Part shown: positions 14,040 through 56,014 of the stretch, one piece after another
How positions within the stretch are numbered: the stretch's first letter is position 1
How the letters are laid out: each line of letters begins with the position of its first letter
IMG/VR virus record: IMGVR_UViG_3300030102_005174
Span: 1 to 56,014 of that record
Direction: 5' to 3' (one strand)
From: a virus
Length of the DNA: 56,014 bases
Position numbers and translations under genes: made by a program
The notes under the pieces: model-generated
What the model saw: the letters and a program-made list of their open reading frames with translations, nothing else
The model's database searches: none
Told to the model about the DNA's origin: nothing

Positions 14040-14459
14040 TTACCAACCGGTTAAGGCACTAGAAACATCGCAAAAATGTAATCCACCGGCAAAACATTCA
14101 TTTTCTAATGCTGGTCTTCCAAATACTTGATTTGTATATTTATAAATTACAGATGGTGGAGCGCCCACGCCATTATGTTTTAGCATAATATTTGGTACAC
14201 CGGCTTTAATTTGCCTAGCAACAGAATTATGATATTTGTAAATATCAGCATCTTCAGCATAACCATTTAACACTCTAGCAAGTGCGCCAAGTTCAAAAGC
14301 ATTATCACTTACCCTTACACAAATACTGTCTAAAGGGCTTCTTTTGTCATAATCATCGTAGCAATATTCCGGTGTTAAATAATACCAATGTAAAGATGCA
14401 CTTGGATAACCCTCTTTCTTTTTTTCCGGATGCCATTTTACTCTAAATGCTTTAAACAT
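14040..14459 (-). CDS. Unknown protein, 139 residues
   Basis: No family recognised. It begins MFKAFRVKWHPEKKKEGYP, has many Tyr and Trp in the first third (LHWYYLTPEYCYDDYD) and five cysteines. The middle (DNAFELGALARVLNGYAED) is helical. It is the last gene of a short minus-strand run (14968 to 14040) that starts at a promoter with the shared 17-bp dyad, so it probably belongs to that regulated set. Confidence 0.6.
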   Translation of the reverse strand: MFKAFRVKWHPEKKKEGYPSASLHWYYLTPEYCYDDYDKRSPLDSICVRVSDNAFELGALARVLNGYAEDADIYKYHNSVARQIKAGVPNIMLKHNGVGAPPSVIYKYTNQVFGRPALENECFAGGLHFCDVSSALTGW

Positions 14460-14462
14460 TTT

Positions 14463-14702
14463 TTAACCCCCCCAATGTTCTTGCCAAGTTAATTCTATTG
14501 CATTTTCATAATTTCTTTCATCAAAACTATTTATTACAATACCTTTGGCTTTAAGTTTCTTATAAATATTATGTTTAAATTCAACTAAACACTCACTTGT
14601 TTCACAAGTGTTTTGAAGCCCATCAAGGGCATAGATATTATCTAAATGCCCCATAAGTTCTGTTTTAACTGCTCCCATTACTGCGCCCCCATTTCTTTCC
14701 AA
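14463..14702 (-). CDS. Unknown protein, 79 residues
   Basis: Small acidic helical protein, with CETSECLVEFKHNIYKKL and a C-terminal IELTWQEHWGG. It overlaps the upstream gene by 25 bases and ends 3 bases before the next, so it is in a coupled operon. No function visible. A later in-frame ATG (MGAVKTEL) at residue 9 is a possible alternative start. Confidence 0.55.
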   Translation of the reverse strand: MERNGGAVMGAVKTELMGHLDNIYALDGLQNTCETSECLVEFKHNIYKKLKAKGIVINSFDERNYENAIELTWQEHWGG

Positions 14703-14968
14703 GTCATACGTTGTCTTACCAACAACTTACCCTCATCGATACGTTCTAATATAAATTCAATATCAACAATTTCTTTTGATAATTTTGCAATTTTAATATC
14801 ACACTCTTGAGCCCAAGATTTGTCTTTAATTAAATCTTTTAAATCTAAAACTTTAAAAATGTGGTCTTCTAAAACTTGTTGTTTTTTTTGCAATTCATCA
14901 ATTTTTTCAAATTTAATAACTGCGTTTGGTTTTAAATATTTTTTTAAATTTTGTGTAAAATTTTCCAT
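14678..14968 (-). CDS. Unknown coiled-coil protein, 96 residues
   Basis: Highly charged, predicted helical nearly throughout (KKYLKPNAVIKFEKIDELQKK). The C-terminal half ends with ILERIDEGKLLVRQRM. First gene behind the promoter-operator at 15002-15030. No family recognised; the composition suggests a small regulatory or protein-binding factor. Confidence 0.55.
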   Translation of the reverse strand: MENFTQNLKKYLKPNAVIKFEKIDELQKKQQVLEDHIFKVLDLKDLIKDKSWAQECDIKIAKLSKEIVDIEFILERIDEGKLLVRQRMTWKEMGAQ

Positions 14969-15001: not shown

Positions 15002-15030
15002 AATATAGTGCCAATGGCACTACATTACAA
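15002..15030 (-). promoter_or_regulatory. Promoter with 17-bp dyad operator (copy 1)
   Basis: On the minus strand: TTGTAA (15025-15030), 17-base spacer, TATATT (15002-15007). The dyad TAGTGCCAATGGCACTA lies at 15006-15022 with perfect 8-bp arms around one central base. It drives the 14968-14040 genes. The -35 box overlaps the stop codon of the upstream 191-residue gene, so this is an internal promoter. Confidence 0.8.
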
Positions 15031-16012: not shown

Positions 16013-16228
16013 CTAATTACTTGGGCTTTCATAAATATATTTATTTAAACTTATTTTGCTTATGCGTCTTGCACCACCAAATTTTTTGCTTAAAATATCT
16101 TTATTTTCTATCATGTGATAAACTTTACGTTGGCTACAACTTAACTGTTGAGCAACTTGCTCAACAGTAAGCCATGTATCATTATAGTGCGCATCAATAA
16201 AATCTTCTTCACTAGAATGGTATTTCAT
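16013..16228 (-). CDS. Excisionase-like HTH DNA-binding protein
   Basis: 71 residues. WLTVEQVAQQLSCSQRKVYHMI (about 20-41) is a winged helix-turn-helix of the excisionase/MerR-like HTH_17 type, followed by ARRISKISLNKYI. No integrase is present in the window, so it is more likely a transcription regulator or DNA architecture factor than an excisionase. It overlaps ssb by 17 bases. Confidence 0.8.
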   Translation of the reverse strand: MKYHSSEEDFIDAHYNDTWLTVEQVAQQLSCSQRKVYHMIENKDILSKKFGGARRISKISLNKYIYESPSN

Positions 16229-18396: not shown

Positions 18397-18426
18397 AATG
18401 TTCTTTCTTTAATTAAGTTTAAGTTA

Positions 18427-18460
18427 TTGCTTATGTAACATCGCTGTGTTAATAATGCAA
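18427..18460. promoter_or_regulatory. Overlapping divergent promoters between exonuclease and rusA
   Basis: Plus strand: TTGCTT (18427-18432), 17-base spacer, TAATAA (18450-18455). Minus strand: TTGCAT (18455-18460), 17-base spacer, TACATA (18432-18437). The two overlap almost fully and face opposite ways. A half copy of the shared dyad (TAGTGCCAACGG, 18468-18479) lies just after the plus -10, so a regulator could control one or both. Confidence 0.6.
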
Positions 18461-18497
18461 GTCATTTTAGTGCCAACGGTATGAAAGAATATGCAAA

Positions 18498-22320: not shown

Positions 22321-22584
22321 TTATTTTTCTAAAATCAACTCTATATGTCTTTTAATATCAATACTGCCATTTAAACCTAGCTGTCTCCTTTCATTTAGTA
22401 ACGCTAATATTAAAGGCATCTCCGGTGGTATAGCACGGCTACCGGCTATCCATCTCCTAACTGTAGATTCATTTCTTCCCAGCAACTTACTTAACTTACG
22501 TTGCGAACCCCAGCCAAAAACATTTTCAATACTTTTCTTAAATTCCTTTGGGTTTAAATCCATTTCATCACCTATTCTTTTCAT
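22321..22584 (-). CDS. Cro/XRE-like HTH regulator
   Basis: 87 residues. GSQRKLSKLLGRNESTVRRWI (about 28-48) is a helix-turn-helix of the lambda-repressor-like type, followed by GSRAIPPEMPLILALL. No dimerisation or cleavage domain is present, so it is Cro-like. Its own promoter contains one copy of the 17-bp dyad (22595-22611) that recurs in five other promoters, so it is the best candidate to bind that site and regulate itself and the others. That link is inference from geometry. Confidence 0.8.
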   Translation of the reverse strand: MKRIGDEMDLNPKEFKKSIENVFGWGSQRKLSKLLGRNESTVRRWIAGSRAIPPEMPLILALLNERRQLGLNGSIDIKRHIELILEK

Positions 22585-22590
22585 AAATGC

Positions 22591-22619
22591 AATGTAGTGC
22601 CAAATGCACTAAAAAGCAA
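22591..22619 (-). promoter_or_regulatory. Promoter with 17-bp dyad operator (copy 2)
   Basis: Minus strand: TTGCTT (22614-22619), 17-base spacer, TACATT (22591-22596). Dyad TAGTGCCAAATGCACTA at 22595-22611, one arm imperfect. It drives the HTH regulator gene, suggesting autoregulation. Confidence 0.75.
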
Positions 22620-22621
22620 TC

Positions 22622-22646
22622 AAAAAGGGGCATTACACCCCTTTTT
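22622..22646 (-). terminator. Terminator after the DUF932 gene
   Basis: AAAAAGGGG (22622-22630) pairs with CCCCTTTTT (22638-22646) around a 7-base loop. Read on the minus strand it ends with a T run, right after the DUF932 stop at 22660. The A/T runs on both sides make it usable in both directions. Confidence 0.75.
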
Positions 22647-22659
22647 TTATTTTTATTTG

Positions 22660-23757
22660 TTAAGCTACGTCTTGTAAAACTTTCCATTCATTGGGTTGTA
22701 AATCAAGTATTTTACCCCCAATTCTTTCAAGCTCAGTAGCTCTTTCATAGGTGTCGGCTTTTTTACTATAATCGGTAACTGCATTTAATAAACCCCATGC
22801 AGTTACATCACCACCTTTAATCAAAGATGTTAAAATGCCTTCTTGCTCATTTTCAGCAAGCCCATATTGTTTAGCCAAAACTTTAATAGTTTCGTTTGGA
22901 GCATTCATTTCTGAACTGTCTGCAAGGCTACGCATTTTATCAACATTATTTAAAAACAAAGTTTCGTTTGCAGTGTTTTTAACAATATCTCTAATTGCCA
23001 ATTTAAGCGTATGTGCATCTGCTTCAAGTGTTTCGGTGCTTAACAAATCATAGCTTTCACTCAATTTAGTTCCAACATGAGTTTTGCGAGTTTTGCCATC
23101 TTGAACAACCAAACCATTATCGCAAACAAGTCTATAAACCAACATACTTACTTCAACTGCACCAAATCCAACTTCAGAATTTCTAATAAGCAAACCGGAT
23201 TGTACAACATCACCCTTTTTAACAATGGCTGATATTTGTGGTAAAACAGCTTTTATGTACATATTTTTGTCGGTTAAACTACAGCTTTTAATCTGAATGT
23301 TTGGCATCTCCAAAAGAGTTGGTAATGCGCCCTCTGCGATAAGTTCGTTATCGATACGCTTGTATTTATCACTTAAGAAAGCCCTACAAGTATATTTTTC
23401 TAAATTATTTTGTTTATCTTGACCATCGTCAAACAAACGCAACATTCTTGGTTTTGGGTTTTTCTCAAACCAATGATTAATATTTTCTTTTAATAATGAT
23501 TGGTTGTCCTCAAAACGCATTTTATCATAATATCTTTTGGGGATATCTAAATGTGTTGCAATTTGCGTATGCGCAACATCACTAATATCAAGTTGAGAAT
23601 TTGGCATCTCATTTGAGTTAATACCAAATGCCAAATCATTTCGTGTTGTTGATTTTTCCAAAGTCAATTTATTTGTAGATAATACAATATCTTTTTTCTT
23701 GGCTTTGTTTTCTTCTAGCTTTTTAGCTAATTCAATTAAATTTATATCTTGTTTCAT
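22660..23757 (-). CDS. DUF932 phage/plasmid protein
   Basis: 365 residues. The block AHTQIATHLDIPKRYYDKM, then RAFLSDKYKRIDNELIAEG, SGLLIRNSEVGFGAVEVSM and RLVCDNGLVV are typical of the DUF932 family, widespread in phages and plasmids with unknown role, possibly DNA binding. It follows the 80-residue gene with a strong hairpin between. SD (AAAGGA) precedes the ATG. Confidence 0.85.
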   Translation of the reverse strand: MKQDINLIELAKKLEENKAKKKDIVLSTNKLTLEKSTTRNDLAFGINSNEMPNSQLDISDVAHTQIATHLDIPKRYYDKMRFEDNQSLLKENINHWFEKNPKPRMLRLFDDGQDKQNNLEKYTCRAFLSDKYKRIDNELIAEGALPTLLEMPNIQIKSCSLTDKNMYIKAVLPQISAIVKKGDVVQSGLLIRNSEVGFGAVEVSMLVYRLVCDNGLVVQDGKTRKTHVGTKLSESYDLLSTETLEADAHTLKLAIRDIVKNTANETLFLNNVDKMRSLADSSEMNAPNETIKVLAKQYGLAENEQEGILTSLIKGGDVTAWGLLNAVTDYSKKADTYERATELERIGGKILDLQPNEWKVLQDVA

Positions 23758-23803: not shown

Positions 23804-24046
23804 TTATTGATTTTGTGCCTTAACCCATTTATCCATAGATTTTTTGGTCATTGCGTTTTCAAACATTAGGTTTAAAGTTCCATCTAACATTTGGTCTAGT
23901 CCATCATCACCTAAATCAAATTTTAATTCGCCTTTCATAAGTGATGGTGATTTTTCCAACTTCTTAAATTCTTCTCTAATTAAAGCTGAAAATTTAACAG
24001 CAAATTCTTGCTGTATTTCTTCTATTGCATTGTATCTTCCTAACAT
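23804..24046 (-). CDS. Unknown protein, 80 residues
   Basis: Helical, with AIEEIQQEFAVKFSALIREEF, then KFDLGDDGLDQMLDGTL and AMTKKSMDKW. No family recognised. First gene behind promoter-operator copy 3 and upstream of DUF932, so the two are probably co-regulated. Confidence 0.6.
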   Translation of the reverse strand: MLGRYNAIEEIQQEFAVKFSALIREEFKKLEKSPSLMKGELKFDLGDDGLDQMLDGTLNLMFENAMTKKSMDKWVKAQNQ

Positions 24047-24086: not shown

Positions 24087-24115
24087 AATATAGCACCATT
24101 GGCACTAATTGTCAA
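24087..24115 (-). promoter_or_regulatory. Promoter with 17-bp dyad operator (copy 3)
   Basis: Minus strand: TTGACA (24110-24115), 17-base spacer, TATATT (24087-24092), a near-consensus sigma70 promoter. Dyad TAGCACCATTGGCACTA at 24091-24107, one substitution in one arm. It drives the 80-residue gene and DUF932. Confidence 0.82.
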
Positions 24116-26677: not shown

Positions 26678-27084
26678 TCTGCCTAGCTACTGCAATCTAT
26701 TTCGAAGCAAGAGGTGAGCCTATGGTTGGGCAAGTCGCAGTAGCTCAAGTGGTCATTAATCGTGTTGCAGATTGGAGATATCCAAATGATGTTTGCGAGG
26801 TTGTAACACAGGGTTACTATTATACTTGGGATAATACAAAACCAATTAAAGATAAATGCCAGTTCAGTTTTTGGTGCGATGGTTTGCCGGAGACAATAAA
26901 TGATAAATTAGCATGGGGTTTTGCATTAGATATTGCCGAAGCAACGCTTAATGGATATTTGTATGATACCACACAAGGCGCAACACATTACCACGCTTAT
27001 TATGTACAGCCTAGCTGGCGTAAAAGTTTTACACAAACGGTCAGAATAAATGACCACATTTTTTATAGATGGGAGATTGAATAA
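26662..27084 (+). CDS. Cell wall hydrolase, SleB family
   Basis: 140 residues. YFEARGEPMVGQVAVAQVVINR at 13-34 is the SleB/Hydrolase_2 active site with the catalytic Glu, and FSFWCDGLPE plus GATHYHAYYVQPSW complete the fold. It cuts peptidoglycan. The hydrophobic start is short, so export is unclear. It lies in the early-to-middle region, far from the main lysis genes, so it may have another role, perhaps local wall opening. Confidence 0.85.
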   Translation: MFNSLICLATAIYFEARGEPMVGQVAVAQVVINRVADWRYPNDVCEVVTQGYYYTWDNTKPIKDKCQFSFWCDGLPETINDKLAWGFALDIAEATLNGYLYDTTQGATHYHAYYVQPSWRKSFTQTVRINDHIFYRWEIE

Positions 27085-27326
27085 TGACAAAATTTTCAAC
27101 TGAATTTATTGATAAGGTAAAAACACATTGGGAAGAAAATAAAGGCAAAGTAAAATATGTTGCTGAAACTGGTGTACACCTTAAACGCAAAACATCAAAA
27201 AAATATACATTAGATGATGTAGCTGACCATTTTGGTATTACAGAAAGCCAAGCAAGGCGTATTTTGTACGTCAAGCCCACCAAGCCAAAAGAACATATTT
27301 CAGAGGTACAAACATACCAGCGTTAG
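27084..27326 (+). CDS. Small HTH-like protein
   Basis: 80 residues. TLDDVADHFGITESQARRIL (about 46-65) has the shape of a helix-turn-helix. Basic N-terminal half (KVKYVAETGVHLKRKTSKK). Last gene before a promoter-terminator region at 27387, so it may be a regulator. No family recognised with certainty. Confidence 0.6.
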   Translation: MTKFSTEFIDKVKTHWEENKGKVKYVAETGVHLKRKTSKKYTLDDVADHFGITESQARRILYVKPTKPKEHISEVQTYQR

Positions 27327-28666: not shown

Positions 28667-29875
28667 ATGAGTAAAACAGATTTCAAAGTTGAAATGTGGG
28701 ATATAACAAAGCCAAAGGCATATGAAAGTAATCCCAGACAAATTGGCATGGAAAGTGTTGCGAAAACAGCGATGTCAATCGAAAAATATGGTTGGCGTCA
28801 ACCGATTGTTGTTGATGAAGATGATATTATTTTAGCTGGTCATACAAGATTACTTGCCGGTGAATATTTAAAACAAAAACAAGTTCCGGTTCATGTTGCA
28901 GTTGGTTTAACTGATGAAGAAAAAAGGGCATACAGAATTGCAGATAACAGAACTGCTCAAGAAAGCCAGTGGGATTTGCCATTATTAGCTGAAGAATTAA
29001 AATTTTTAGAAGATGAGGAATTTGATTTAAAGTTTACTGGATTTGATACAACAGAATTAGATAAACTGTTAAAAAATGTAAATGAAGGTCTAACAGACGA
29101 AGATGAAGTTCCAGAGGTTACTGAAACTGATATAAAAGTTGGTGACGTTTTTGAACTTGGTAATCATAAAATTGTTTGTGGTGATTCATTAGATGAAAAA
29201 AATTTACAAACACTTTTAAATGATAAAAAAGCAGATATGGTATTTACCGATCCACCATATAATGCAGATTATAAATCAAGAGGTAAAAACGAAATGTTAA
29301 GAGAGGGCATTAAGAATGACAATATGTCCGATAGCAAATTTCAAATTTTTGCTGAAAACATTTTTAAAACTGTAAAATCAAACATTTATAAAGGCAGTTC
29401 AATATATATTTGTTGTAATTGGAAAGATTCATATCCAAGATTTTATTTTATTGCTGAAAAAAATAATATAAATGTTTCAAACTGTATTGTTTGGAATAAA
29501 GAAAGCGCTGGCATGGGTTGGAATGACTATCGCTATCAATTCGAATTTATATTATATGGCTTTGAAAAAGCTAGAAAACATAACTTCTATGGCGATAGAA
29601 CAAATACAGATTTATGGTCATTAAAAAGAGAAGCAAGAAGTTCATACGAACACCCAACACAAAAACCGGTTGAACTGGTTGAAAAAGCTATTACAAATTC
29701 AAGTTTGCAAGAACAGTTGGTGTTGGATTTGTTTTTGGGGTCTGGCAGTACATTAATTGCCTGTGAAAAAGTAAACAGAAAATGTTATGGCATTGAACTT
29801 GACCCAAGATATGTGGATGTAATTATCCAACGGTGGGAAAACTACACCGGCAAAAAAGCAAAAAAAATTAATTAA
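28667..29875 (+). CDS. ParB-nuclease-like domain fused to DNA methyltransferase
   Basis: 402 residues. Residues about 10-115 are a ParB N-terminal-like domain (KAYESNPRQI, GWRQPIVVDEDDIILAGHTRLLAGE, RIADNRTAQ). Residues about 150-400 are a DNA methyltransferase with FTDPPYNADY (motif IV, about 193-202) before DLFLGSGST (motif I, about 355), the order of beta-class amino-methyltransferases. It methylates adenine N6 or cytosine N4 in an unknown site, probably protecting phage DNA. It sits two genes before the terminase block. Confidence 0.92.
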   Translation: MSKTDFKVEMWDITKPKAYESNPRQIGMESVAKTAMSIEKYGWRQPIVVDEDDIILAGHTRLLAGEYLKQKQVPVHVAVGLTDEEKRAYRIADNRTAQESQWDLPLLAEELKFLEDEEFDLKFTGFDTTELDKLLKNVNEGLTDEDEVPEVTETDIKVGDVFELGNHKIVCGDSLDEKNLQTLLNDKKADMVFTDPPYNADYKSRGKNEMLREGIKNDNMSDSKFQIFAENIFKTVKSNIYKGSSIYICCNWKDSYPRFYFIAEKNNINVSNCIVWNKESAGMGWNDYRYQFEFILYGFEKARKHNFYGDRTNTDLWSLKREARSSYEHPTQKPVELVEKAITNSSLQEQLVLDLFLGSGSTLIACEKVNRKCYGIELDPRYVDVIIQRWENYTGKKAKKIN

Positions 29876-30837: not shown

Positions 30838-31185
30838 ATGACAGCAAAAAAAACAAAAAAAATTACAAAAGGCAGACCCTCTTTTAAACCAACAAAAGAG
30901 CAAAAATCACAAGTAACCAGTATGTCCGGTTATGGTTTAACTGCCGATCAAATTTGTGCAATAATTGATGTTTCAAGGGGTACATTATTTAAATACTTTC
31001 AAAAAGAACTTAAAGAGGGTGAAGCAAAAGCGTTAGGTAGAGTTTCGCAAAAAGCGTTTGAAATGGCTGTGAGTGGTAATCAACCAGCCATGACTATGTT
31101 TTATTTAAAATGTAGGGGTAAATGGACAGAAAGAATAGCTGTTGCAAGCGAAGATTTACCACCAATAGTTGTTTCAAGTGATTAA
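30838..31185 (+). CDS. Terminase small subunit
   Basis: 115 residues. Basic N-terminus (TAKKTKKITKGRPSF), then GYGLTADQICAIIDVSRGTLFKYF, an HTH segment as in terminase small subunits, then helices with FEMAVSGNQPAMTMFYLKCRGKW. It recognises the packaging site and sits directly before the large subunit with a one-base overlap. Confidence 0.85.
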   Translation: MTAKKTKKITKGRPSFKPTKEQKSQVTSMSGYGLTADQICAIIDVSRGTLFKYFQKELKEGEAKALGRVSQKAFEMAVSGNQPAMTMFYLKCRGKWTERIAVASEDLPPIVVSSD

Positions 31186-32486
31186 TGTATTCTGCATATG
31201 AGGAATATGAAGCGCAAAACAATGGCAAACCATTGGAAGGCGCACCAAGACCTATTGAAATAAAATTAACCACACCACAACGTAATGTAGCTCTATCGAA
31301 CAAAAGATTTCGAATAAATGTAGCTGGGCGTAGAAGTGGTAAAAGTTATTTAAGTAAATTTTTAATTTTTCAATATGCCAATAATAATAAATATAGTAAG
31401 TGCTGGTATGTTGCGCCAACATATAGAATGGCAAAACAAATTATGTGGGGTGAAATTAAAGATTTAATTTTAAACAGTGGGCGTAGTGGTAGTTTGCCAA
31501 ATGAAACTGACATGAGTATTACGCTTAAAAATGGCAGTTTAATCGCATTGCGTGGCGCAGATAATCCGGACAGTTTGCGTGGTGTTGGGCTTGATTTTTT
31601 GGTTATGGATGAGGTTCAAGATATAAGTCAACAAACATGGGAAGCTGTTTTAGCCCCAGCACTTGCTGATAAAAATGGTAAAGCATTACTTTGTGGTACG
31701 CCAAAAGGTTATAATTGGTTTTATGACTTATGGGTTAATGCGCACGAAGATGAACAATGGCAATGTTTCAGAAGTACAACTCTTGAAAGTGGTATTGTAA
31801 GCCAAGAAGAAATAAACCGACAAAAAAAAATAATGGATGATAGATTATTTCGGCAAGAGTTCGAAGCTAGTTTTGAAACTTTAGCCGGTAGAGTTTATCA
31901 AAATTTTACGAGGGAAATACATACAGACGATTATATACAAGACAATGGTGGTGAAATTTTAGTTGGTATGGACTTTAATGTTAATCCAATGTGCTGTTGT
32001 TATGCACAAAGGGTTGGCGAGCAACTACATATATTTGATGAGGAAGTTATACCAAATGCAAATACTGAAATAATGGCAAGACAAATTGACCAAAAATATA
32101 AAAATCGTACCATAACAATTTATCCAGACCCAAGTGGTAAGAGTAGGCGTACAAGTGCGCCAGTTGGGCAAACAGATTTTACAATATTAGAAAACTATGG
32201 ATTTCAAGTTGTTGCGCCCAGTAGTGCGCCACCAGTTATTGATAGAATAAATGAAGTAAATGCAATGCTAGAAAACGCAGAAGGTACAACAAGACTATTT
32301 ATAAACCCACGATGTACACAATTAATTAAAAGTTTGGAAGGACTTACATTTAAAGAGGGGACTAATATGCCGGATAAAAATTTAGGTTTAGACCATATGG
32401 CTGATGCTTTGGGTTATATGGTACATAGTGAATTTCCACTTAATCCAGACGTTGTGGGTGTCGGCAGAGTAAAGGGTTATTATTAA
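31185..32486 (+). CDS. terL: Terminase large subunit
   Basis: 433 residues. Walker A AGRRSGKSY (about 47-55), Walker B FLVMDEVQD (about 137-145), then a nuclease domain with GMDFNVNPM and DPSGKSRRT, and DHMADALGYM near the end. It is the ATPase and nuclease motor that cuts and packages DNA. Length is normal. Confidence 0.95.
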   Translation: MYSAYEEYEAQNNGKPLEGAPRPIEIKLTTPQRNVALSNKRFRINVAGRRSGKSYLSKFLIFQYANNNKYSKCWYVAPTYRMAKQIMWGEIKDLILNSGRSGSLPNETDMSITLKNGSLIALRGADNPDSLRGVGLDFLVMDEVQDISQQTWEAVLAPALADKNGKALLCGTPKGYNWFYDLWVNAHEDEQWQCFRSTTLESGIVSQEEINRQKKIMDDRLFRQEFEASFETLAGRVYQNFTREIHTDDYIQDNGGEILVGMDFNVNPMCCCYAQRVGEQLHIFDEEVIPNANTEIMARQIDQKYKNRTITIYPDPSGKSRRTSAPVGQTDFTILENYGFQVVAPSSAPPVIDRINEVNAMLENAEGTTRLFINPRCTQLIKSLEGLTFKEGTNMPDKNLGLDHMADALGYMVHSEFPLNPDVVGVGRVKGYY

Positions 32487-32497
32487 GGGGGTAAAAT

Positions 32498-33883
32498 ATG
32501 CCAATTACTGATTTACATACTGAATATGAAGATTACAGCATACAATGGAAAAGGATAAGAGATTGTGTTGCCGGTGAAGATGCCGTCAAGGACAGTGGGC
32601 AAGTACACTTACCAAAACCGGATAATATGTTACCAGACCAATATGTTAATTATTTAACAAGGGCATTGTTTTATGGCGCAACAGGCAGAACATTATCTGG
32701 GTTGGTAGGTGCTGTTTTTAGAAAAAGACCAATAGTACAAGTGCCAGATAGGTTGAGGGAAAATTTATTTAATGTTACCGGCACTGGTGTACCATTTGAT
32801 AATTTTGCACAGCATACAGTTGAAGAAACACTTGCAATGGGTCGTTTTGCAGTATTGGTTGACAGACCGGCAGAAGCAGATGGTTCACCATACTTTAGAG
32901 GTTACAGGGCAGAAGAAATAACAAACTGGCGCACAGAAACAATTAATGGTGAAGAAAAGCTGGTGCAGTGCATATTAAAAGAGGTTTCTGAAACACCTAT
33001 GGCTGATGGGTTTGGTACAGAGCGCAAGTTACGTTATAGAGTATTAAATTTAATTGATGGTATTTACACGGTTCAAATATATGAGGAAAGCGAAGATGCT
33101 GAAGTATTTGCATTGGTTGATGAAATAACACCACAAAAAAGAGGTGAAAATTTTGATTATATACCATTGCAATTTTTTGGTTCTGTTGAGTTAAATCCAA
33201 AAGTACAAAAACCACCATTAATAGATTTGGCAAACGTAAATATAAGCCATTACAGAACAAGTGCAGACTTGGAACAAGGTAACTTTTTAACAAGCCAGCC
33301 GACCCCTTATATAACTGGCTTAAAAGCAGACCAAATGGGCGATTTTCCTATTGGTAGTGGTAGTATGTGGTTTTTACCGGAGAGCAGTAATGTTGGTATG
33401 TTAGAATATCAAGGTGCTGGTCTTACGTTTTTAGAAAATGCGTTAACAAGAAAACAACAAATGATGGCACAACTGGGCGCAAGGCTTTTAGAAGATAGTA
33501 GGCGTTCTGTTGAAAGTGCTGAAACATTGCGTGTAAGAAGCAGTGGCGAAAGTAGTGTTTTGGCTAATTTAGCAAATAACTGTAGTATGGGTTTAGAGCA
33601 ATGTTTGGAATGGTATGTAGATTGGGAAGGGTTAAACCCAGATATTGTGGAAGTTACATTAAATACAGACTTTTTGGATAAGCGATTAGACCCAACTGAA
33701 TTAAGAGAGTTGGTAAGTGCTTGGCAAAGTGGAGCAATACCATTAGATGATTTAATTTATAATTTACAGCGTGGCGAAATACTACGACCAGATTACAGTA
33801 TTGATGAGGTAAAAGGTTTACTGGAACAAACGCCAACAACAACAGTTGGTAATGAGTTAGAGTTAGACGAAAGTGAAGAGTAA
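32498..33883 (+). CDS. Portal protein (DUF4055)
   Basis: 461 residues, preceded by AAGGGGG. YINYLTRALFYGATGRTL-like segment (here YVNYLTRALFYGATGRTLSG) and LVGAVFRKRP, then GRFAVLVDRP and LTFLENALTRKQQMMAQLG, match DUF4055 portals. It forms the 12-mer ring at one capsid vertex, through which DNA passes. The end overlaps the next gene by one base. Confidence 0.92.
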   Translation: MPITDLHTEYEDYSIQWKRIRDCVAGEDAVKDSGQVHLPKPDNMLPDQYVNYLTRALFYGATGRTLSGLVGAVFRKRPIVQVPDRLRENLFNVTGTGVPFDNFAQHTVEETLAMGRFAVLVDRPAEADGSPYFRGYRAEEITNWRTETINGEEKLVQCILKEVSETPMADGFGTERKLRYRVLNLIDGIYTVQIYEESEDAEVFALVDEITPQKRGENFDYIPLQFFGSVELNPKVQKPPLIDLANVNISHYRTSADLEQGNFLTSQPTPYITGLKADQMGDFPIGSGSMWFLPESSNVGMLEYQGAGLTFLENALTRKQQMMAQLGARLLEDSRRSVESAETLRVRSSGESSVLANLANNCSMGLEQCLEWYVDWEGLNPDIVEVTLNTDFLDKRLDPTELRELVSAWQSGAIPLDDLIYNLQRGEILRPDYSIDEVKGLLEQTPTTTVGNELELDESEE

Positions 33884-39428: not shown

Positions 39429-39698
39429 CTATTCCCAGCGATTGGTTCTGTCACGCAAATACATTTTAATCATATCCTTTAAATCAATGCTGATGTAATC
39501 ACCACCACTATCGCCCATTCTTAAGCATAATGAATGTTCTGCCGGTTCACCATCACAAGCATTATCAAACATATAACAATCCCATTTAATGTTAAGTCCA
39601 CTTTTAGTTTTAGTGGTGCAAGATAATAAATACTCATCTTCATAATGCTCACAATCATTGTCATGGTGTTTGCCTTTATGTATCTTTTTACCAGCCAT
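39429..39698 (-). CDS. Unknown Cys/His-rich protein, 89 residues
   Basis: MAGKKIHKGKHHDNDCEHYE at the start, five cysteines in total (DCEHYEDEYLLSC, DCYMFDNACDGE, SLCLRM). The His/Cys set might bind metal. C-terminus ISIDLKDMIKMYLRD is amphipathic. Third gene of a minus operon behind operator copy 4. No family recognised. Confidence 0.6.
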   Translation of the reverse strand: MAGKKIHKGKHHDNDCEHYEDEYLLSCTTKTKSGLNIKWDCYMFDNACDGEPAEHSLCLRMGDSGGDYISIDLKDMIKMYLRDRTNRWE

Positions 39699-40023
39699 AT
39701 TGATTACCCCCCTCTCTGTTTATTTCAAATTCATAAAACTCAATTATATTATTCATGGCTAATTCTTCACATTCTGTATTATGATATTCTTGATACCATT
39801 TTGGTTTAATTAACCATTCATCAAATGGCACAACGTCAGCCAAACCACTGTAATTATATAAATCTGTAAAAAATTCTCTGTAAACAGGGTCTTCTCTTTT
39901 ACCCATTATTGCTTGAAATTTTAAATGTTTTAATTTCCATTTTTGATCATTTAATATTTCTGTATGTTTTTCTATTTGTTCTTCACAATATTTAATTAAA
40001 AAATTATCATAAAGGTTTTCCAT
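39688..40023 (-). CDS. Unknown protein, 111 residues
   Basis: Helical start (NFLIKYCEEQIEKHTEIL), WKLKHLKFQAIMGKRE and an acidic C-terminal part with aromatic residues (WLIKPKWYQEYHNTE). Good SD on the minus strand. It overlaps the next gene by 11 bases. No family recognised. Confidence 0.6.
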   Translation of the reverse strand: MENLYDNFLIKYCEEQIEKHTEILNDQKWKLKHLKFQAIMGKREDPVYREFFTDLYNYSGLADVVPFDEWLIKPKWYQEYHNTECEELAMNNIIEFYEFEINREGGNQYGW

Positions 40024-40036
40024 TTTATTCTCCTTT

Positions 40037-40052
40037 GGGGGCTTGCGCCCCC
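40037..40052 (-). promoter_or_regulatory. GC-rich hairpin before the 40023 gene
   Basis: GGGGGC (40037-40042) with GCCCCC (40047-40052), 4-base loop. On the minus transcript it lies just before the AAAGGAG SD of the 111-residue gene, as at 23771-23790. No U run follows on that strand. Confidence 0.55.
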
Positions 40053-40065
40053 TTTTGTGTTTAAG

Positions 40066-40440
40066 TTAACTTAATGATTTTGATACTGCGTTTTCAAATG
40101 CTTCAAATGGGTGCGATCCACTTGCTGTATATTCAACATCTAAATATTTAAATGTGCATCTTACTTCATCACCATCAAAAGCTGTTACACAACCAATAGT
40201 TTCATATGTATAACCATCAAAATATTTAACATTCCAAATTGGTCTTTCAGTTGCATAATAACCGTTAGTACCTAATGTTTCATTTCTTTCATAATCTCTT
40301 TCAAACTGAAAATTTGCTTTAAGTTCTGATTGTTTGTTGTTTACATAATCGCCCCAAGCTACGTTAGCTTGCTCATGTGATGGTAATACGCTTTTAAACT
40401 CTGTTGGGTATTTAACCATTTTTGTATAATCTATGTTCAT
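40066..40440 (-). CDS. Unknown protein, 124 residues
   Basis: First gene behind operator copy 4. The first part is Lys/Glu-rich; then RPIWNVKYFDGYTYETIGCVT and DGDEVRCTFKYLDVEYTASG are beta-like. It ends with GSHPFEAFENAVSKSLS. No enzyme motif; no family recognised. Confidence 0.6.
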   Translation of the reverse strand: MNIDYTKMVKYPTEFKSVLPSHEQANVAWGDYVNNKQSELKANFQFERDYERNETLGTNGYYATERPIWNVKYFDGYTYETIGCVTAFDGDEVRCTFKYLDVEYTASGSHPFEAFENAVSKSLS

Positions 40441-40480
40441 TTGTTACTCCGTTTTGTTTTTGTATTTAAGTTATACATAT

Positions 40481-40509
40481 AATATAGCGCCAATGGCACT
40501 ATTTGTAAA
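40481..40509 (-). promoter_or_regulatory. Promoter with 17-bp dyad operator (copy 4)
   Basis: Minus strand: TTTACA (40504-40509), 17-base spacer, TATATT (40481-40486). Dyad TAGCGCCAATGGCACTA at 40485-40501, one substitution in one arm. It drives the 40440-39429 genes. Confidence 0.8.
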
Positions 40510-40558
40510 GTCTTTTTTTTACTTTTTTTAAAGAAAATTGTAATCTTTTGAATTTATT

Positions 40559-40864
40559 ATGAAAAAAAATTACAAAAACAAAAAATATTTAGAGTTTATA
40601 TGCAGAATGCGTTGCATTATATTGGCAAAAAGCTGTAAAGGCGAAACAAATGCTCATCATTTACTCAAACCATACGATGGTAGTAGGGGTATGGGATTAA
40701 AGGCAAGTGACAAAAATGTTGTGCCATTATGTTTTTACCACCATCAAGAATTGCATGACAAAGTTGGCAATGAGAATAAGTTTTGGACATTGTATGGTTA
40801 TGATGAAGATTATGGAAGGCGCATCGCTGAAAAATTATTTAATCACTATGAAAAAAGCCCCTAA
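40559..40864 (+). CDS. HNH nuclease-like protein (DUF968/Ref-like)
   Basis: 101 residues. NAHHLLKPYDGSRGMGLK and KNVVPLCFYHHQELHD with paired His and Cys residues are an HNH-type metal-binding site of the DUF968/Ref style. It would cut DNA or act as a recombination nuclease. It stands alone between minus-strand genes, so it may be a moron-like insertion. No SD or clear promoter seen. Confidence 0.75.
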   Translation: MKKNYKNKKYLEFICRMRCIILAKSCKGETNAHHLLKPYDGSRGMGLKASDKNVVPLCFYHHQELHDKVGNENKFWTLYGYDEDYGRRIAEKLFNHYEKSP

Positions 40865-40877
40865 TAAATTAGGGGCT
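40856..40877. terminator. Terminator after the HNH gene
   Basis: AGCCCCTAA (40856-40864) with TTAGGGGCT (40869-40877), 9 bp, 4-base loop. It includes the stop of the HNH gene and separates it from the convergent minus gene. Confidence 0.8.
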
Positions 40878-40923
40878 AATAATATTTAATTCTTGGGAGG
40901 AAATTAAATGTAATTAAAAACTA

Positions 40924-41352
40924 TTATCGTTTTCTAAATTTAAAGTACCCACCCATATCGGTAAAGTCAAATGTTTTACGTTTAAATTTTTTGTTTATTT
41001 TAAAATCTTTAAAATTAAAAGCACTCGCATCACCGGCATTAACCATAACGCTCCAAACTTCATGCAAAGCGTCTAGACGTTTGTTTTCATGCAAACCCAA
41101 AACATTTTGGGCTTCATCTTTGAAATTTGAATAATTAATACGCAAAATATTACTTGCCACAACTTGAGCGACAGTTTCCTTTGGTATGCTTGCACGGTAA
41201 GGATAATCATTTTGAGGAGTATGGGTTGTATTTTTTACTGTTTTAAATACTTTTTCAATATCCCCTTTAAATCTAGCCCTTACCATTAAATTTTTATTAT
41301 TATTATAATCTTCTACAACACTGAAAAAAGCGTTGGGTGTAAATAACCACAT
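40924..41352 (-). CDS. Unknown protein, 142 residues
   Basis: Start chosen at ATG 41352, which follows AAAGGA; an ATG five codons earlier contains that SD. Features: WLFTPNAFFSVVEDYNNNKNLMVRARFKGDIE, then PYRASIPKETVAQVV, LDALHEVWSVM and a basic end (KINKKFKRKTFDF). The start looks like a small phage protein seen in marine phages, unknown role. It is behind operator copy 5. Confidence 0.6.
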   Translation of the reverse strand: MWLFTPNAFFSVVEDYNNNKNLMVRARFKGDIEKVFKTVKNTTHTPQNDYPYRASIPKETVAQVVASNILRINYSNFKDEAQNVLGLHENKRLDALHEVWSVMVNAGDASAFNFKDFKINKKFKRKTFDFTDMGGYFKFRKR

Positions 41353-41447
41353 ATAATTTCCTTTCATCTAAATTAGGTGTTAGCCCACATTAGTAAAACT
41401 TTATCAATTAACTATGTTTAAAAAAAAATTTGTGAGCTAACCTCGCA

Positions 41448-41476
41448 ATTATAGTGCCATTTGCACTATTTGTCAA
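41448..41476 (-). promoter_or_regulatory. Promoter with 17-bp dyad operator (copy 5)
   Basis: Minus strand: TTGACA (41471-41476), 17-base spacer, TATAAT (41448-41453), a full consensus sigma70 promoter. Dyad TAGTGCCATTTGCACTA at 41452-41468, one mismatch in one arm. It drives the 142-residue gene. Confidence 0.85.
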
Positions 41477-41504
41477 GTTTTTTCTATTTTTTGTTATTTT
41501 TTTC

Positions 41505-41533
41505 TTGTCAGCTAGTGCCATTGGTATTATATA
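41505..41533 (+). promoter_or_regulatory. Promoter with 17-bp dyad operator (copy 6), head genes
   Basis: TTGTCA (41505-41510), 17-base spacer, TATATA (41528-41533). Dyad-like TAGTGCCATTGGTATTA at 41513-41529 keeps one arm and the core. It faces away from copy 5, 30 bases off, and drives the scaffold and coat genes. Confidence 0.75.
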
Positions 41534-41555
41534 TTTTTGCAAAAGTGAGGTTATA

Positions 41556-42308
41556 GTGGCATTAAAAAGCATTTATACTAAAAAAGAAGATATCCCAGAA
41601 AATTTACAAGAATATTATATTGAAAAAGATGGTGGTTTTCACCTACAAGCAGATGGGCTAGTGCCAAAAACAACAGTTGATGAATTTAGAAACAACAATA
41701 TAAAACTCACAAAAGAATTGGAAAAAGTTCAAAACACTTTAAACGGTGTAAATGTTGAAGAGTACAAACAGCTTAAAGAAGAAAAACAATTAATTGATGA
41801 CCAAAAGTTAATTGATGCCGGTAAAGTAGAAGAAGTTGTTTTGAGCAGAACAGAAAAGTTGCGTAATACTTTAGAAGCAGAAGCAAACAAATACAAAGAA
41901 ATTGCAGAATTAAATGAGCGAAAAGTAAATGATTTAATTTCGCAACAAAATGCAATGACTATTAATAACCGTTTAAAAGATGAAGCTATAAAAGCTGGTG
42001 TAGCGCCAACAGCGTTGCAAGATGTTTTAAGCAGAGGTTCACAAATTTGGCAAGTGCAAGATAATACGATTGTAGCTATGCAAAACGATACGCCTTTGTA
42101 TAGTAAGAATGGTTCAGCCAAACTTACGATGCAAGAGTGGTTAGAGGACTTATCAGAAGAAGCTCCTCACCTTTATAAATCCAGTTCTGGTGGTGGTGCT
42201 ACTGGGGGTGGTAGTCTTGGTGCTAGAAAAGTTTCTAGATTAGATCAAGGCGCATTAAATACCAACCTAGAAGCAATCGCTAGTGGAAAGGTCGTTGTGA
42301 CCGAATAG
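41556..42308 (+). CDS. Head scaffolding protein
   Basis: 250 residues from GTG 41556, which follows AGTGAGG. An in-frame ATG at 41454 lies upstream of the promoter and is rejected. The chain is highly helical and charged (KELEKVQNTLNGVNVEEYKQ, TEKLRNTLEAEANKYKE), and the C-terminal part has VAPTALQDVLSRG, SSGGGATGGGS and ALNTNLEAIASGKVVV. It comes directly before the coat gene, the usual place of scaffold proteins that guide capsid assembly and then leave. Confidence 0.8.
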   Translation: MALKSIYTKKEDIPENLQEYYIEKDGGFHLQADGLVPKTTVDEFRNNNIKLTKELEKVQNTLNGVNVEEYKQLKEEKQLIDDQKLIDAGKVEEVVLSRTEKLRNTLEAEANKYKEIAELNERKVNDLISQQNAMTINNRLKDEAIKAGVAPTALQDVLSRGSQIWQVQDNTIVAMQNDTPLYSKNGSAKLTMQEWLEDLSEEAPHLYKSSSGGGATGGGSLGARKVSRLDQGALNTNLEAIASGKVVVTE

Positions 42309-42345
42309 CATACGGAGTATGCGACAGACTTACGGTGTAAATCTG
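42308..42345 (+). promoter_or_regulatory. Structured leader between scaffold and coat gene
   Basis: GCATAC (42308-42313) pairs with GTATGC (42317-42322), and a second hairpin of CAGACTTA with TAAATCTG (about 42325-42345, one mismatch) follows. An AAGGAGA SD for the coat gene lies about 30 bases later. The structure may separate translation of the two genes or stabilise coat mRNA. Confidence 0.4.
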
Positions 42346-42390
42346 CTAAATTACTAAATCTTAATCTATAACTATAAGGAGACTTTAGTC

Positions 42391-43530
42391 ATGGCTAATA
42401 CCATTACTAATATACTTCCAAAGATACTAGCTCGTGGTTTATTGGCGCTACGAGAACAAGCAGTAATGCCTAGACTAGTAAATTTGGATTACAGCAATGA
42501 AAGCGCCCAAAAAGGCGATACAATCGATGTGCCAATTCCAAGTTCGCTTACTGTAAGTGATACTGTACCGTCAAACGTATTAGAAGCACCAGCAGATAGC
42601 GCACCAACCAAAGTCCAAATATCATTAAATAATTGGAAAAAGGTTAATTTTCATTTAACAGATAAGCAGTTAGTTGATATTGATAAAAACGAACACTTCA
42701 TTCCAATGCAGATGTCTGAAGCTGTTAGAGCATTATCAAACCAAATTAACTTAACTGTATTGCAAGAGTTCAAAGGCGTCTACGGTTTTGTAGGTACTGC
42801 TGGCACAACACCTTTTGGAAGTAATGTTACAGATGCAACTAATGCAAGAAAAGTTTTAAACCAGCAGTTATGTCCAAGAGATAACAGACGTATGGTTCTT
42901 GACTTTGATGCAGAAGCAAACGCACTGGCATTAGCAGAATTTCAGCGTGTAAACGAAAGTGGAGACATTGGCGTTAAGCGTGAAGGTGAAATTGGCAGAA
43001 AGTTTGGTTTTGACATTTTTACTGATGACCAAGTTGTTACACATACAGCCGGTGGCAGTGGTACACCATTAGTTAACGGAGCGTTAGCTGTTGGTGATAC
43101 AAGCGTTGCTATCGATGGCATGAGTGGCACAAGTGGTTTTGTAGTTGGCGATGTTGTTACATTCGCTGGTCATACACAAACTTATGCAATTACCGTTGCT
43201 CCTACAGCAAGTAGTGGCGCTCAAACAGTTACAGTTAGCCCAGCAATTAAAGAAATAGTTGCAGATAACGCTAGTGTAACTAAAAAGGCTTCTCACACTG
43301 TTAACTTGGCTTTCCATAGAGATGCTTTTGCATTAGCTATGCGCCCATTAACATCAGAGACAGCCGGTGATGCATATGGCAACAATATTGTTTCTATGAC
43401 AGACCCAGTAACTGGACTTTCAATGAGATTGGAAGTTTACAGACAGTATAAGCAAGTTGTTTATGAACTTGATGCTCTTTGGGGCGTTAAGCTAATTAGA
43501 CCGGAATATGCTGTAAGGATAGCTGGTTAA
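42391..43530 (+). CDS. Major capsid protein (P22 coat-like)
   Basis: 379 residues, strong SD. MANTITNILPKILARGLLALREQ at the start, then DTIDVPIPSSLTVSD, ALSNQINLTVLQEFKGVYG and an insertion rich in Gly/Thr (about 225-300), then FHRDAFALAMRPL and YKQVVYELDALWGVKLIRPE. That matches the P22 coat protein (gp5) family of HK97-fold capsid proteins. It builds the icosahedral head. The strong terminator after it should limit downstream transcript amounts. Confidence 0.92.
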   Translation: MANTITNILPKILARGLLALREQAVMPRLVNLDYSNESAQKGDTIDVPIPSSLTVSDTVPSNVLEAPADSAPTKVQISLNNWKKVNFHLTDKQLVDIDKNEHFIPMQMSEAVRALSNQINLTVLQEFKGVYGFVGTAGTTPFGSNVTDATNARKVLNQQLCPRDNRRMVLDFDAEANALALAEFQRVNESGDIGVKREGEIGRKFGFDIFTDDQVVTHTAGGSGTPLVNGALAVGDTSVAIDGMSGTSGFVVGDVVTFAGHTQTYAITVAPTASSGAQTVTVSPAIKEIVADNASVTKKASHTVNLAFHRDAFALAMRPLTSETAGDAYGNNIVSMTDPVTGLSMRLEVYRQYKQVVYELDALWGVKLIRPEYAVRIAG

Positions 43531-55740: not shown

Positions 55741-56014
55741 ATGACTTTTGCAGATGAAAGAAAAGCAATAGAAAGCCGGTTAAGCACTAATTGGACAACA
55801 ACAACAATACAGTTTGAAAACGTACCCTTTAAAAAACCGGATAATAATACTTATATTGCCATGTTTATTTTAAATGGTAGTGCTGAACAAATAGATATGA
55901 GTGGGAGCGCTACAACGGATAAACATAGACATATTGGAAATATAATTATACAGATATTCGTGCCGGCTGATACTGGCACTAATACAGCACGAAGTTATGC
56001 CGATAGTTTAGCTA
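55741..56014 (+). CDS. Tail terminator-like protein, N-terminal part (split by window ends)
   Basis: 91 residues from ATG 55741 to the window end, no stop. DERKAIESRLSTNWTTTTIQFEN and KHRHIGNIIIQIFVPADTGTN, then ARSYADSLA, resemble the start of DUF4128/tail terminator proteins. With a 7-base overlap of the ends it continues at 7-153, giving 139 residues with no frame break. Position directly after gp10-like and before tail tube fits a tail terminator. Confidence 0.75.
   Translation, partial: MTFADERKAIESRLSTNWTTTTIQFENVPFKKPDNNTYIAMFILNGSAEQIDMSGSATTDKHRHIGNIIIQIFVPADTGTNTARSYADSLA
56008..56014 (+). repeat. 7-base overlap with the window start
   Basis: TTAGCTA here equals bases 1-7. Joined at this overlap the reading frame of the tail terminator stays open; joined end to end without collapse it meets TGA after about 33 codons. 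The sequence is probably a circular or circularly permuted molecule of about 56007 bases. Confidence 0.6.

What the first reader, a model, noticed from the sequence alone, without database searches (positions are those of the whole stretch)
22321..22619. The Cro-like protein is the likely master regulator and controls itself
The only clear lambda-repressor-like HTH gene has one of the six dyads in its own promoter. It has no second domain, so it looks like a short Cro-like repressor. No integrase is present, so this regulon would time gene expression in a lytic cycle rather than keep lysogeny.
Basis: inference. Interest (0 to 1): 0.7.

Follow-up and report, generated by a model that had tools for sequence, protein, structure and literature searches.

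The report
Phage repressor with six promoter operators
A small phage DNA-binding protein very probably switches off its own gene and five other phage promoters, including the one in front of the capsid genes, by sitting on a palindrome buried inside each promoter; this wiring is conserved in about ten related uncultured phages, some of them temperate.

Summary
The 87-aa HTH gene has the dyad 22595-22611 in its own promoter, one of exactly six in the window; the next best match scores no better than chance. All six lie inside the 17-bp spacer of a sigma-70 promoter in one fixed register, so RNA polymerase and a dimer could not bind together.

Dyad and terminase searches gave about ten related phage species with the same promoter-operator cassette. 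In all six species where the HTH locus was seen, the operator sits in the HTH promoter and the ATG lies 5-7 nt after the -10 box (a leaderless mRNA). A more distant relative with a 31%-identical HTH lacks the dyad. It carries a different palindrome (TATGCA-N3-TGCATA), in or next to the spacer at four promoters and near the HTH start.

The interpretation needs correction. Three of three relatives that cover the slot carry an integrase plus a separate CI/Cro pair whose intergenic region lacks the dyad. The protein is therefore a third regulator, not the switch's Cro, and the regulon is not tied to a lytic lifestyle. Its logic and fold most resemble Aca (anti-CRISPR-associated) autorepressors. 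Binding, timing and target functions are untested.

The parts
22321..22584 (-). HTH repressor gene, 87 aa (alternative start M8 at 22563, 80 aa)
   Evidence: homologs 44-51% identical in 5 further phage species and 31% in G020/G027. The ATG at 22584 lies 6 nt after the -10 box, as in relatives (5-7 nt), favouring a leaderless start; M8 has an SD-like AGGTGA
22591..22619 (-). HTH gene promoter: -35 TTGCTT 22614-22619, 17-nt spacer, -10 TACATT 22591-22596; the weakest of the six promoters (7/12)
22595..22611 (.). operator (dyad) in the HTH gene's own promoter, TAGTGCCAAATGCACTA
   Evidence: orthologous operator in 6/6 species
22622..22646 (.). terminator-like hairpin with T runs on both sides, separating the DUF932 gene from the HTH transcription unit
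15002..15030 (-). promoter (TTGTAA-N17-TATATT) with operator 15006-15022, driving 14678-14968, 14463-14702 and 14040-14459
   Evidence: same cassette before the 14040 homolog in G007, G012, G013
24087..24115 (-). promoter (TTGACA-N17-TATATT, 11/12) with operator 24091-24107, driving 23804-24046 and possibly DUF932 gene 22660-23757
40481..40509 (-). promoter (TTTACA-N17-TATATT) with operator 40485-40501, driving 40066-40440, 39688-40023 and 39429-39698
   Evidence: same in G005
41448..41476 (-). promoter (TTGACA-N17-TATAAT, 12/12) with operator 41452-41468, driving 40924-41367
   Evidence: homologous promoter in G003, G005, G016
41505..41533 (+). promoter (TTGTCA-N17-TATATA) with operator 41513-41529 (decayed right half), driving the scaffold/capsid operon
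   Evidence: same site before scaffold homologs in G004, G005, G011, G012
41556..43530 (+). regulated head operon: scaffold protein (GTG start about 41556) and P22-type coat protein 42391-43530
   Evidence: PHROG 206 (3e-29), PHROG 283 (2e-92), PF11651 (1e-28); start read
14040..14968 (-). regulated operon of three small proteins of unknown function
   Evidence: no family above cut-off
39429..41367 (-). regulated small genes 39429-39698, 39688-40023, 40066-40440 and 40924-41367, unknown function
   Evidence: 40924-41367 conserved next to the scaffold gene in relatives
18397..18497 (.). 101-bp recE/RusA junction where temperate relatives carry CI and Cro; empty in the window

Best explanation
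The HTH protein binds, most likely as a dimer, to the 17-bp dyad TAGTGCCAWTGGCACTA and represses by steric exclusion: each dyad fills the spacer between the -35 and -10 boxes, with two bases overlapping the -10. It keeps its own weak promoter low (negative feedback) and damps five strong promoters. Four of these drive small minus-strand genes of unknown function and one drives the scaffold/capsid operon. Its mRNA is probably leaderless. It works like an Aca-type brake: on entry of naked phage DNA the strong promoters fire at once, repressor accumulates and shuts them down. In temperate relatives the same protein would silence these promoters in the prophage, alongside but separate from the CI/Cro switch. 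Shown by sequence: the gene, six operators, fixed promoter register, conservation, and change of operator together with HTH. Inferred: binding, dimerisation, repression rather than activation, timing, and anti-host roles of the small genes.
For: Six operators far above background. A 17-nt spacer at zero offset is the best of all spacer/offset combinations (mean 9.7/12 over the six sites). A score of 9 or more occurs at 0.6% of intergenic positions, yet five of six sites reach it. Across 32 non-identical sites the -35 always starts 8 nt before the dyad and the -10 always begins on its last two bases. HTH own-promoter operator in 6/6 species. Covariation: G020/G027, HTH 31% identical, has no TAGTGCCA dyad but four perfect TATGCA-N3-TGCATA sites in 25 kb (0.0 in shuffles). 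Two are in exact register (one 12/12), two are shifted 1-2 nt, and a 2-mismatch site lies at the HTH start; one perfect site lies at the 40924-homolog/scaffold junction, as in the window. No other window HTH gene has a homolog in the mapped relatives. Nearest folds are small autorepressors and antitoxins: HigA2, Aca10, Aca2. Published Aca families bind an inverted repeat within the core promoter and repress it (PMC9410906; PMC9410881).
Against: No binding or expression data exist. Covariation rests on one divergence event (two contigs of one species). Fold matches are not significant by E-value (best 0.14). Repression of a head operon by an early-acting brake is odd for a lytic phage, whose head genes are needed late. 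A host regulator using the same dyad cannot be excluded by sequence alone, though the covariation argues against it.
Confidence: 0.75

Rival explanations
1. Dispersed-operator immunity repressor: the HTH protein is mainly a prophage silencer (like P1 C1 or L5 gp71), and the window phage is a lysogeny-defective derivative that kept it.
For: Integrase, CI and Cro in G007, G012 and G013, which carry the same regulon. These genes are absent from the syntenic slots in the window. The capsid promoter is among the targets. Precedent: lytic D29 is described as a deletion derivative of a temperate parent and shares about 24 dispersed sites with L5 (PMC5712189).
Against: A separate CI/Cro module is present in all three temperate relatives, so the main lysogeny switch is elsewhere. 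The RusA/primase early operon of the window has only a noise-level half-site (18468, score 10.3). No bacterial genome with the HTH was found.
Confidence: 0.3
2. Lambda-type Cro: a lytic partner of a CI repressor that shares its operators.
For: Small single-domain HTH, autoregulated; weak sequence similarity to the relatives' Cro proteins (E 0.0015-0.13).
Against: A real Cro (66-71 aa) sits divergent from CI at another locus in relatives, and that intergenic DNA has no TAGTGCCA dyad (best score under 5).
Confidence: 0.06
3. Activator working from the spacer, as MerR proteins do.
For: The dyad lies between -35 and -10.
Against: MerR-type promoters have 19-20 bp spacers that need remodelling (established knowledge); here the spacer is 17 bp in all 32 sites and several hexamers are near consensus. 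The HTH is not MerR-like.
Confidence: 0.04
4. The dyads are targets of a host regulator and the HTH gene is just one target.
For: Sequence alone cannot name the binder; no tool result supports it directly.
Against: Same operator in phages of 33% to about 52% GC, and operator change together with the phage HTH.
Confidence: 0.08

Closest known systems
Aca (anti-CRISPR-associated) autorepressors, especially Aca10 and Aca2
   Same: Small HTH autorepressor; inverted repeat within the core promoter; blocks a strong promoter. Aca10 site TTGCAA-N16-TATTCT with a 21-bp repeat overlapping -35 and -10 (PMC9410881). Similar predicted fold (7xi5, rmsd 1.6 A over 55 columns).
   Different: No sequence homology detected; own transcription unit rather than the last gene of an acr operon; one regulator for six dispersed promoters including the capsid operon; no known acr gene found.
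Aca8-type regulon of archaeal rudiviruses (SIRV2 early genes)
   Same: Many small early genes scattered in a viral genome share one promoter-plus-regulatory cassette, also in front of the regulator gene itself (PMC11065993).
   Different: Archaeal TATA/BRE promoters and wHTH protein; targets there include demonstrated Acrs; structural genes not reported as targets in the passages read.
Mycobacteriophage L5-type immunity repressor and stoperators
   Same: One phage repressor with many sites across the genome; site motif drifts with the repressor among relatives (PMC6550527).
   Different: Asymmetric 13-bp sites, monomeric two-domain repressor (PMC9283540), most sites outside promoters; here symmetric sites inside promoters and a separate CI/Cro.
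Phage P1 C1 and phiC31 CIR repressor systems (from memory)
   Same: Dispersed operators overlapping promoters of early and late genes.
   Different: Main immunity repressors of their phages, larger proteins; compared only from general knowledge.
Lambda cI/cro
   Same: Small HTH, autoregulation; leaderless cI mRNA in lambda (established knowledge).
   Different: Not paired with CI, different operator locus, many dispersed promoters.

Membership tests
Aca proteins | small HTH protein | tested here: met
   87 aa, HTH with five helices
Aca proteins | inverted repeat within the gene's own core promoter | tested here: met
   22595-22611 inside the 17-bp spacer; 6/6 species
Aca proteins | sequence homology to a known Aca family | tested here: not met
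   no Pfam, NCBIfam or PDB sequence match above cut-off
Aca proteins | encoded with acr genes | tested here: not met
   single-gene unit; no regulated small gene matches a known family; novel Acrs not excluded
Aca proteins | represses the promoter | not testable with these tools
   needs a reporter assay
Lambda-type Cro | shares operators with a divergent CI gene | tested here: not met
   CI/Cro pair of relatives at another locus without the dyad
Lambda-type Cro | small autoregulated HTH | tested here: inconclusive
   size and own-promoter operator fit; binding untested
Dispersed-operator immunity repressor (P1 C1, L5 gp71) | operators at several dispersed phage loci | tested here: met
Dispersed-operator immunity repressor (P1 C1, L5 gp71) | is the repressor that establishes lysogeny | tested here: inconclusive
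   temperate relatives have another CI; function untested
MerR-type spacer activators | 19-20 bp spacer | tested here: not met
   17 bp at all 32 sites

The most novel reading that the evidence does not exclude
A third, CI-independent phage regulator that gates both a set of accessory (perhaps anti-host) genes and the capsid operon purely by derepression of host-type promoters. It uses an autoregulated leaderless repressor and a graded operator set with the capsid sites among the weakest, and it survives loss of the lysogeny genes. The unknown small genes behind the operators would then be a ready list of candidate anti-defence genes.
Probability: 0.3. Interest if true: 0.72.

Novelty: new variant of a known kind. 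Interest (0 to 1): 0.57.

Why it matters
It gives an uncultured phage family a concrete, conserved regulatory circuit with a defined protein, a defined operator and a second, diverged protein-operator pair for specificity tests. It separates late structural-gene control from the CI/Cro switch in temperate relatives. It also yields a short list of co-regulated unknown genes, found the way Aca-based searches find anti-defence genes.

Tried and rejected
Sigma-54 reading of TGGCAC was considered and dropped: no -12 GC element, while sigma-70 hexamers fit throughout. MerR-like activation was rejected on spacer length. 44 of 51 dyad-scan contigs fall outside the terminase-related phages and lack the full promoter register; the five of these that I inspected in gene context lie within or beside long ORFs, and all 44 are treated as chance matches. 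tblastn of the HTH in cultured phages found nothing (one weak hit at E 0.05 for a homolog). HTH search of bacterial genomes found nothing, and the terminase search there gave only relatives at 54% identity or less, so the host is unknown. The half-dyad at 18468 in the early-right promoter region scores at noise level. The scan for the G027 operator in viral contigs brought no further relatives beyond the same species. No Rfam match in the window. An early guess that the protein starts at M8 was weakened by the conserved 5-7 nt spacing from -10 to ATG.

Full report
WHAT IS THERE. The window is a 56,014-base virus contig. It has tail genes at both ends, terminase 31185-32486, portal 32498-33883, scaffold and P22-type coat protein, and a RecE/RusA/primase-helicase replication block. 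The HTH gene 22321-22584 (-) encodes 87 aa. It lies tail-to-tail with the primase-helicase operon and is separated from the DUF932 gene by a hairpin terminator at 22622-22646, so it is probably its own transcription unit.

THE OPERATORS. Six dyads fit TAGTGCCAWTGGCACTA within 2 mismatches: 15006, 22595, 24091, 40485, 41452 and 41513. Both-strand matches within 3 mismatches are 13, against 1.6 expected. With a matrix from 32 sites, the six score 20-31 and the next window sequence 10.4, which is in the range of shuffled sequence. All six are intergenic.

THE REGISTER. Each dyad sits in the spacer of a sigma-70 promoter: -35, two bases, fifteen bases of dyad, then the -10, whose first TA is the end of the dyad. 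Over the six sites this arrangement has the highest mean hexamer score of all spacer/offset combinations (9.67 of 12); five of six reach 9 or more, which 0.6% of intergenic positions do. The best-scoring promoters by an independent scan include 41476-41448 (12/12) and 24115-24087 (11/12). Five promoters point leftward at small genes. The sixth, 41513, points rightward at the scaffold/capsid operon, 61 bp from its divergent neighbour.

RELATIVES. A dyad scan of viral contigs returned 51 stretches. Seven of these encode terminase/portal or capsid relatives of the window and carry the dyad in the promoter register; these contigs were found by the operator alone. A terminase search added others. 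By nucleotide comparison they are about ten species. 32 non-identical sites all keep the 17-nt spacer and the same register. Sites entered this set on dyad match and promoter fit together, so the perfect register partly reflects selection; the six window sites were chosen on the dyad alone.

AUTOREGULATION. HTH homologs occur in G001, G007, G011, G012, G013 and duplicates, 44-51% identical to the window protein. In every one the operator lies directly before the gene, and the start codon is 5-7 nt after the -10 box. That predicts a leaderless mRNA, unlike the other regulated genes in the window, which have ordinary leaders.

COVARIATION. G020/G027 (one species) has an HTH 31% identical to the window's, with recognition-helix changes R-x-x-x-T-V-R-R-W to V-x-x-x-T-V-S-R-W, and no TAGTGCCA dyad. 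It has four perfect TATGCA-N3-TGCATA palindromes in 25 kb, against 0.0 in shuffles. One is in a 12/12 promoter upstream of the terminase and one in TTGTAT-N17-TACAAA, both in the exact register. Two more lie at -35/-10 pairs with 1-2 nt shifts; one of these is between the 40924 homolog and the scaffold gene, as in the window. A two-mismatch copy lies at the HTH start. This is the strongest evidence that the HTH protein reads the dyad. It is a single divergence event.

NOT THE CRO OF A CI SWITCH. G007, G012 and G013 encode a tyrosine integrase. Between recE and RusA they encode a CI-like protein of about 205 aa (HTH_3 above cut-off in G007 and G012; homolog in G013) and a divergent 66-71 aa Cro-like protein. 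The best dyad score in those intergenic regions is under 5. All three relatives that cover this slot have CI, Cro and integrase in addition to the dyad HTH. In the window the slot is 101 bp, and int is missing beside the SSB gene. The window phage therefore looks like a lysogeny-defective relative of temperate phages. The regulon predates that loss or is independent of it.

MECHANISM. Occlusion of the promoter by a dimer is the simplest reading: spacer of optimal length, near-consensus hexamers, symmetric site. Activation from the spacer would need a long MerR-like spacer. The HTH gene's own promoter in the window is the weakest of the six (7/12), as expected for a low steady level. The capsid-operon operators of WIN, G011, G012 and G004 score 20.0, 24.9, 24.1 and 24.1, in the lower part of the range (most sites 25-31), which suggests lower affinity and earlier release. 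That is inference.

COMPARISON. Fold search gives HigA2, Aca10 and Aca2-like proteins among the first, none significant by E-value. Aca proteins bind an inverted repeat within the core promoter and repress it (PMC9410906; PMC9410881). In rudiviruses a shared promoter cassette marks early and anti-defence genes and also precedes aca8 (PMC11065993). L5-type phages have dispersed sites for one repressor, with co-drift of site and repressor (PMC6550527), and lytic D29, described as a deletion derivative of a temperate parent, keeps these sites (PMC5712189). The present system works like a genome-wide Aca-type brake but fails the Aca membership tests of homology and acr linkage.

LIMITS. No experiment; contigs incomplete; host unknown; functions of the regulated small genes unknown.

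Noticed in passing
window 16013-16228 (-): HTH_17/excisionase-like protein (Pfam 39.7 bits) beside SSB with no integrase in the window; temperate relatives have the integrase next to SSB, so it may be a leftover of lost lysogeny or an unrelated HTH.
   Followed up: partly
window 18468-18484: Half-dyad TAGTGCCAACGGTATGA just upstream of the RusA/primase operon, at noise-level score but in the early-right promoter region.
   Followed up: partly
window 27084-27326 (+): 80-aa protein with a weak sigma-70 region 4/HTH_23-like match, not found in the mapped relatives.
   Followed up: partly
window 41454-42308: The listed scaffold ORF start is probably too early; GTG at about 41556 with SD GAGGT fits the promoter and relatives.
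   Followed up: yes
window 28667-29875: ParB-like N-terminus fused to a DNA methyltransferase, no ParA seen.
   Followed up: no
window 55741-56013 and 1-153: Open frames run off both ends inside the tail gene cluster, suggesting a nearly complete, circularly permuted genome cut within tail genes.
   Followed up: no
L158 6750-7487 and L154 7055-7789: A 244-245 aa protein next to the integrase in the temperate relatives; the L158 copy has no Pfam match and neither has a window homolog.
   Followed up: partly
G007 22558, G004 12348, G002 1138, G001 5918, G011 11309: An operator-promoter upstream of the terminase cluster, facing a small gene, is present in relatives and (with the other motif) in G027, but absent from the window.
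   Followed up: partly
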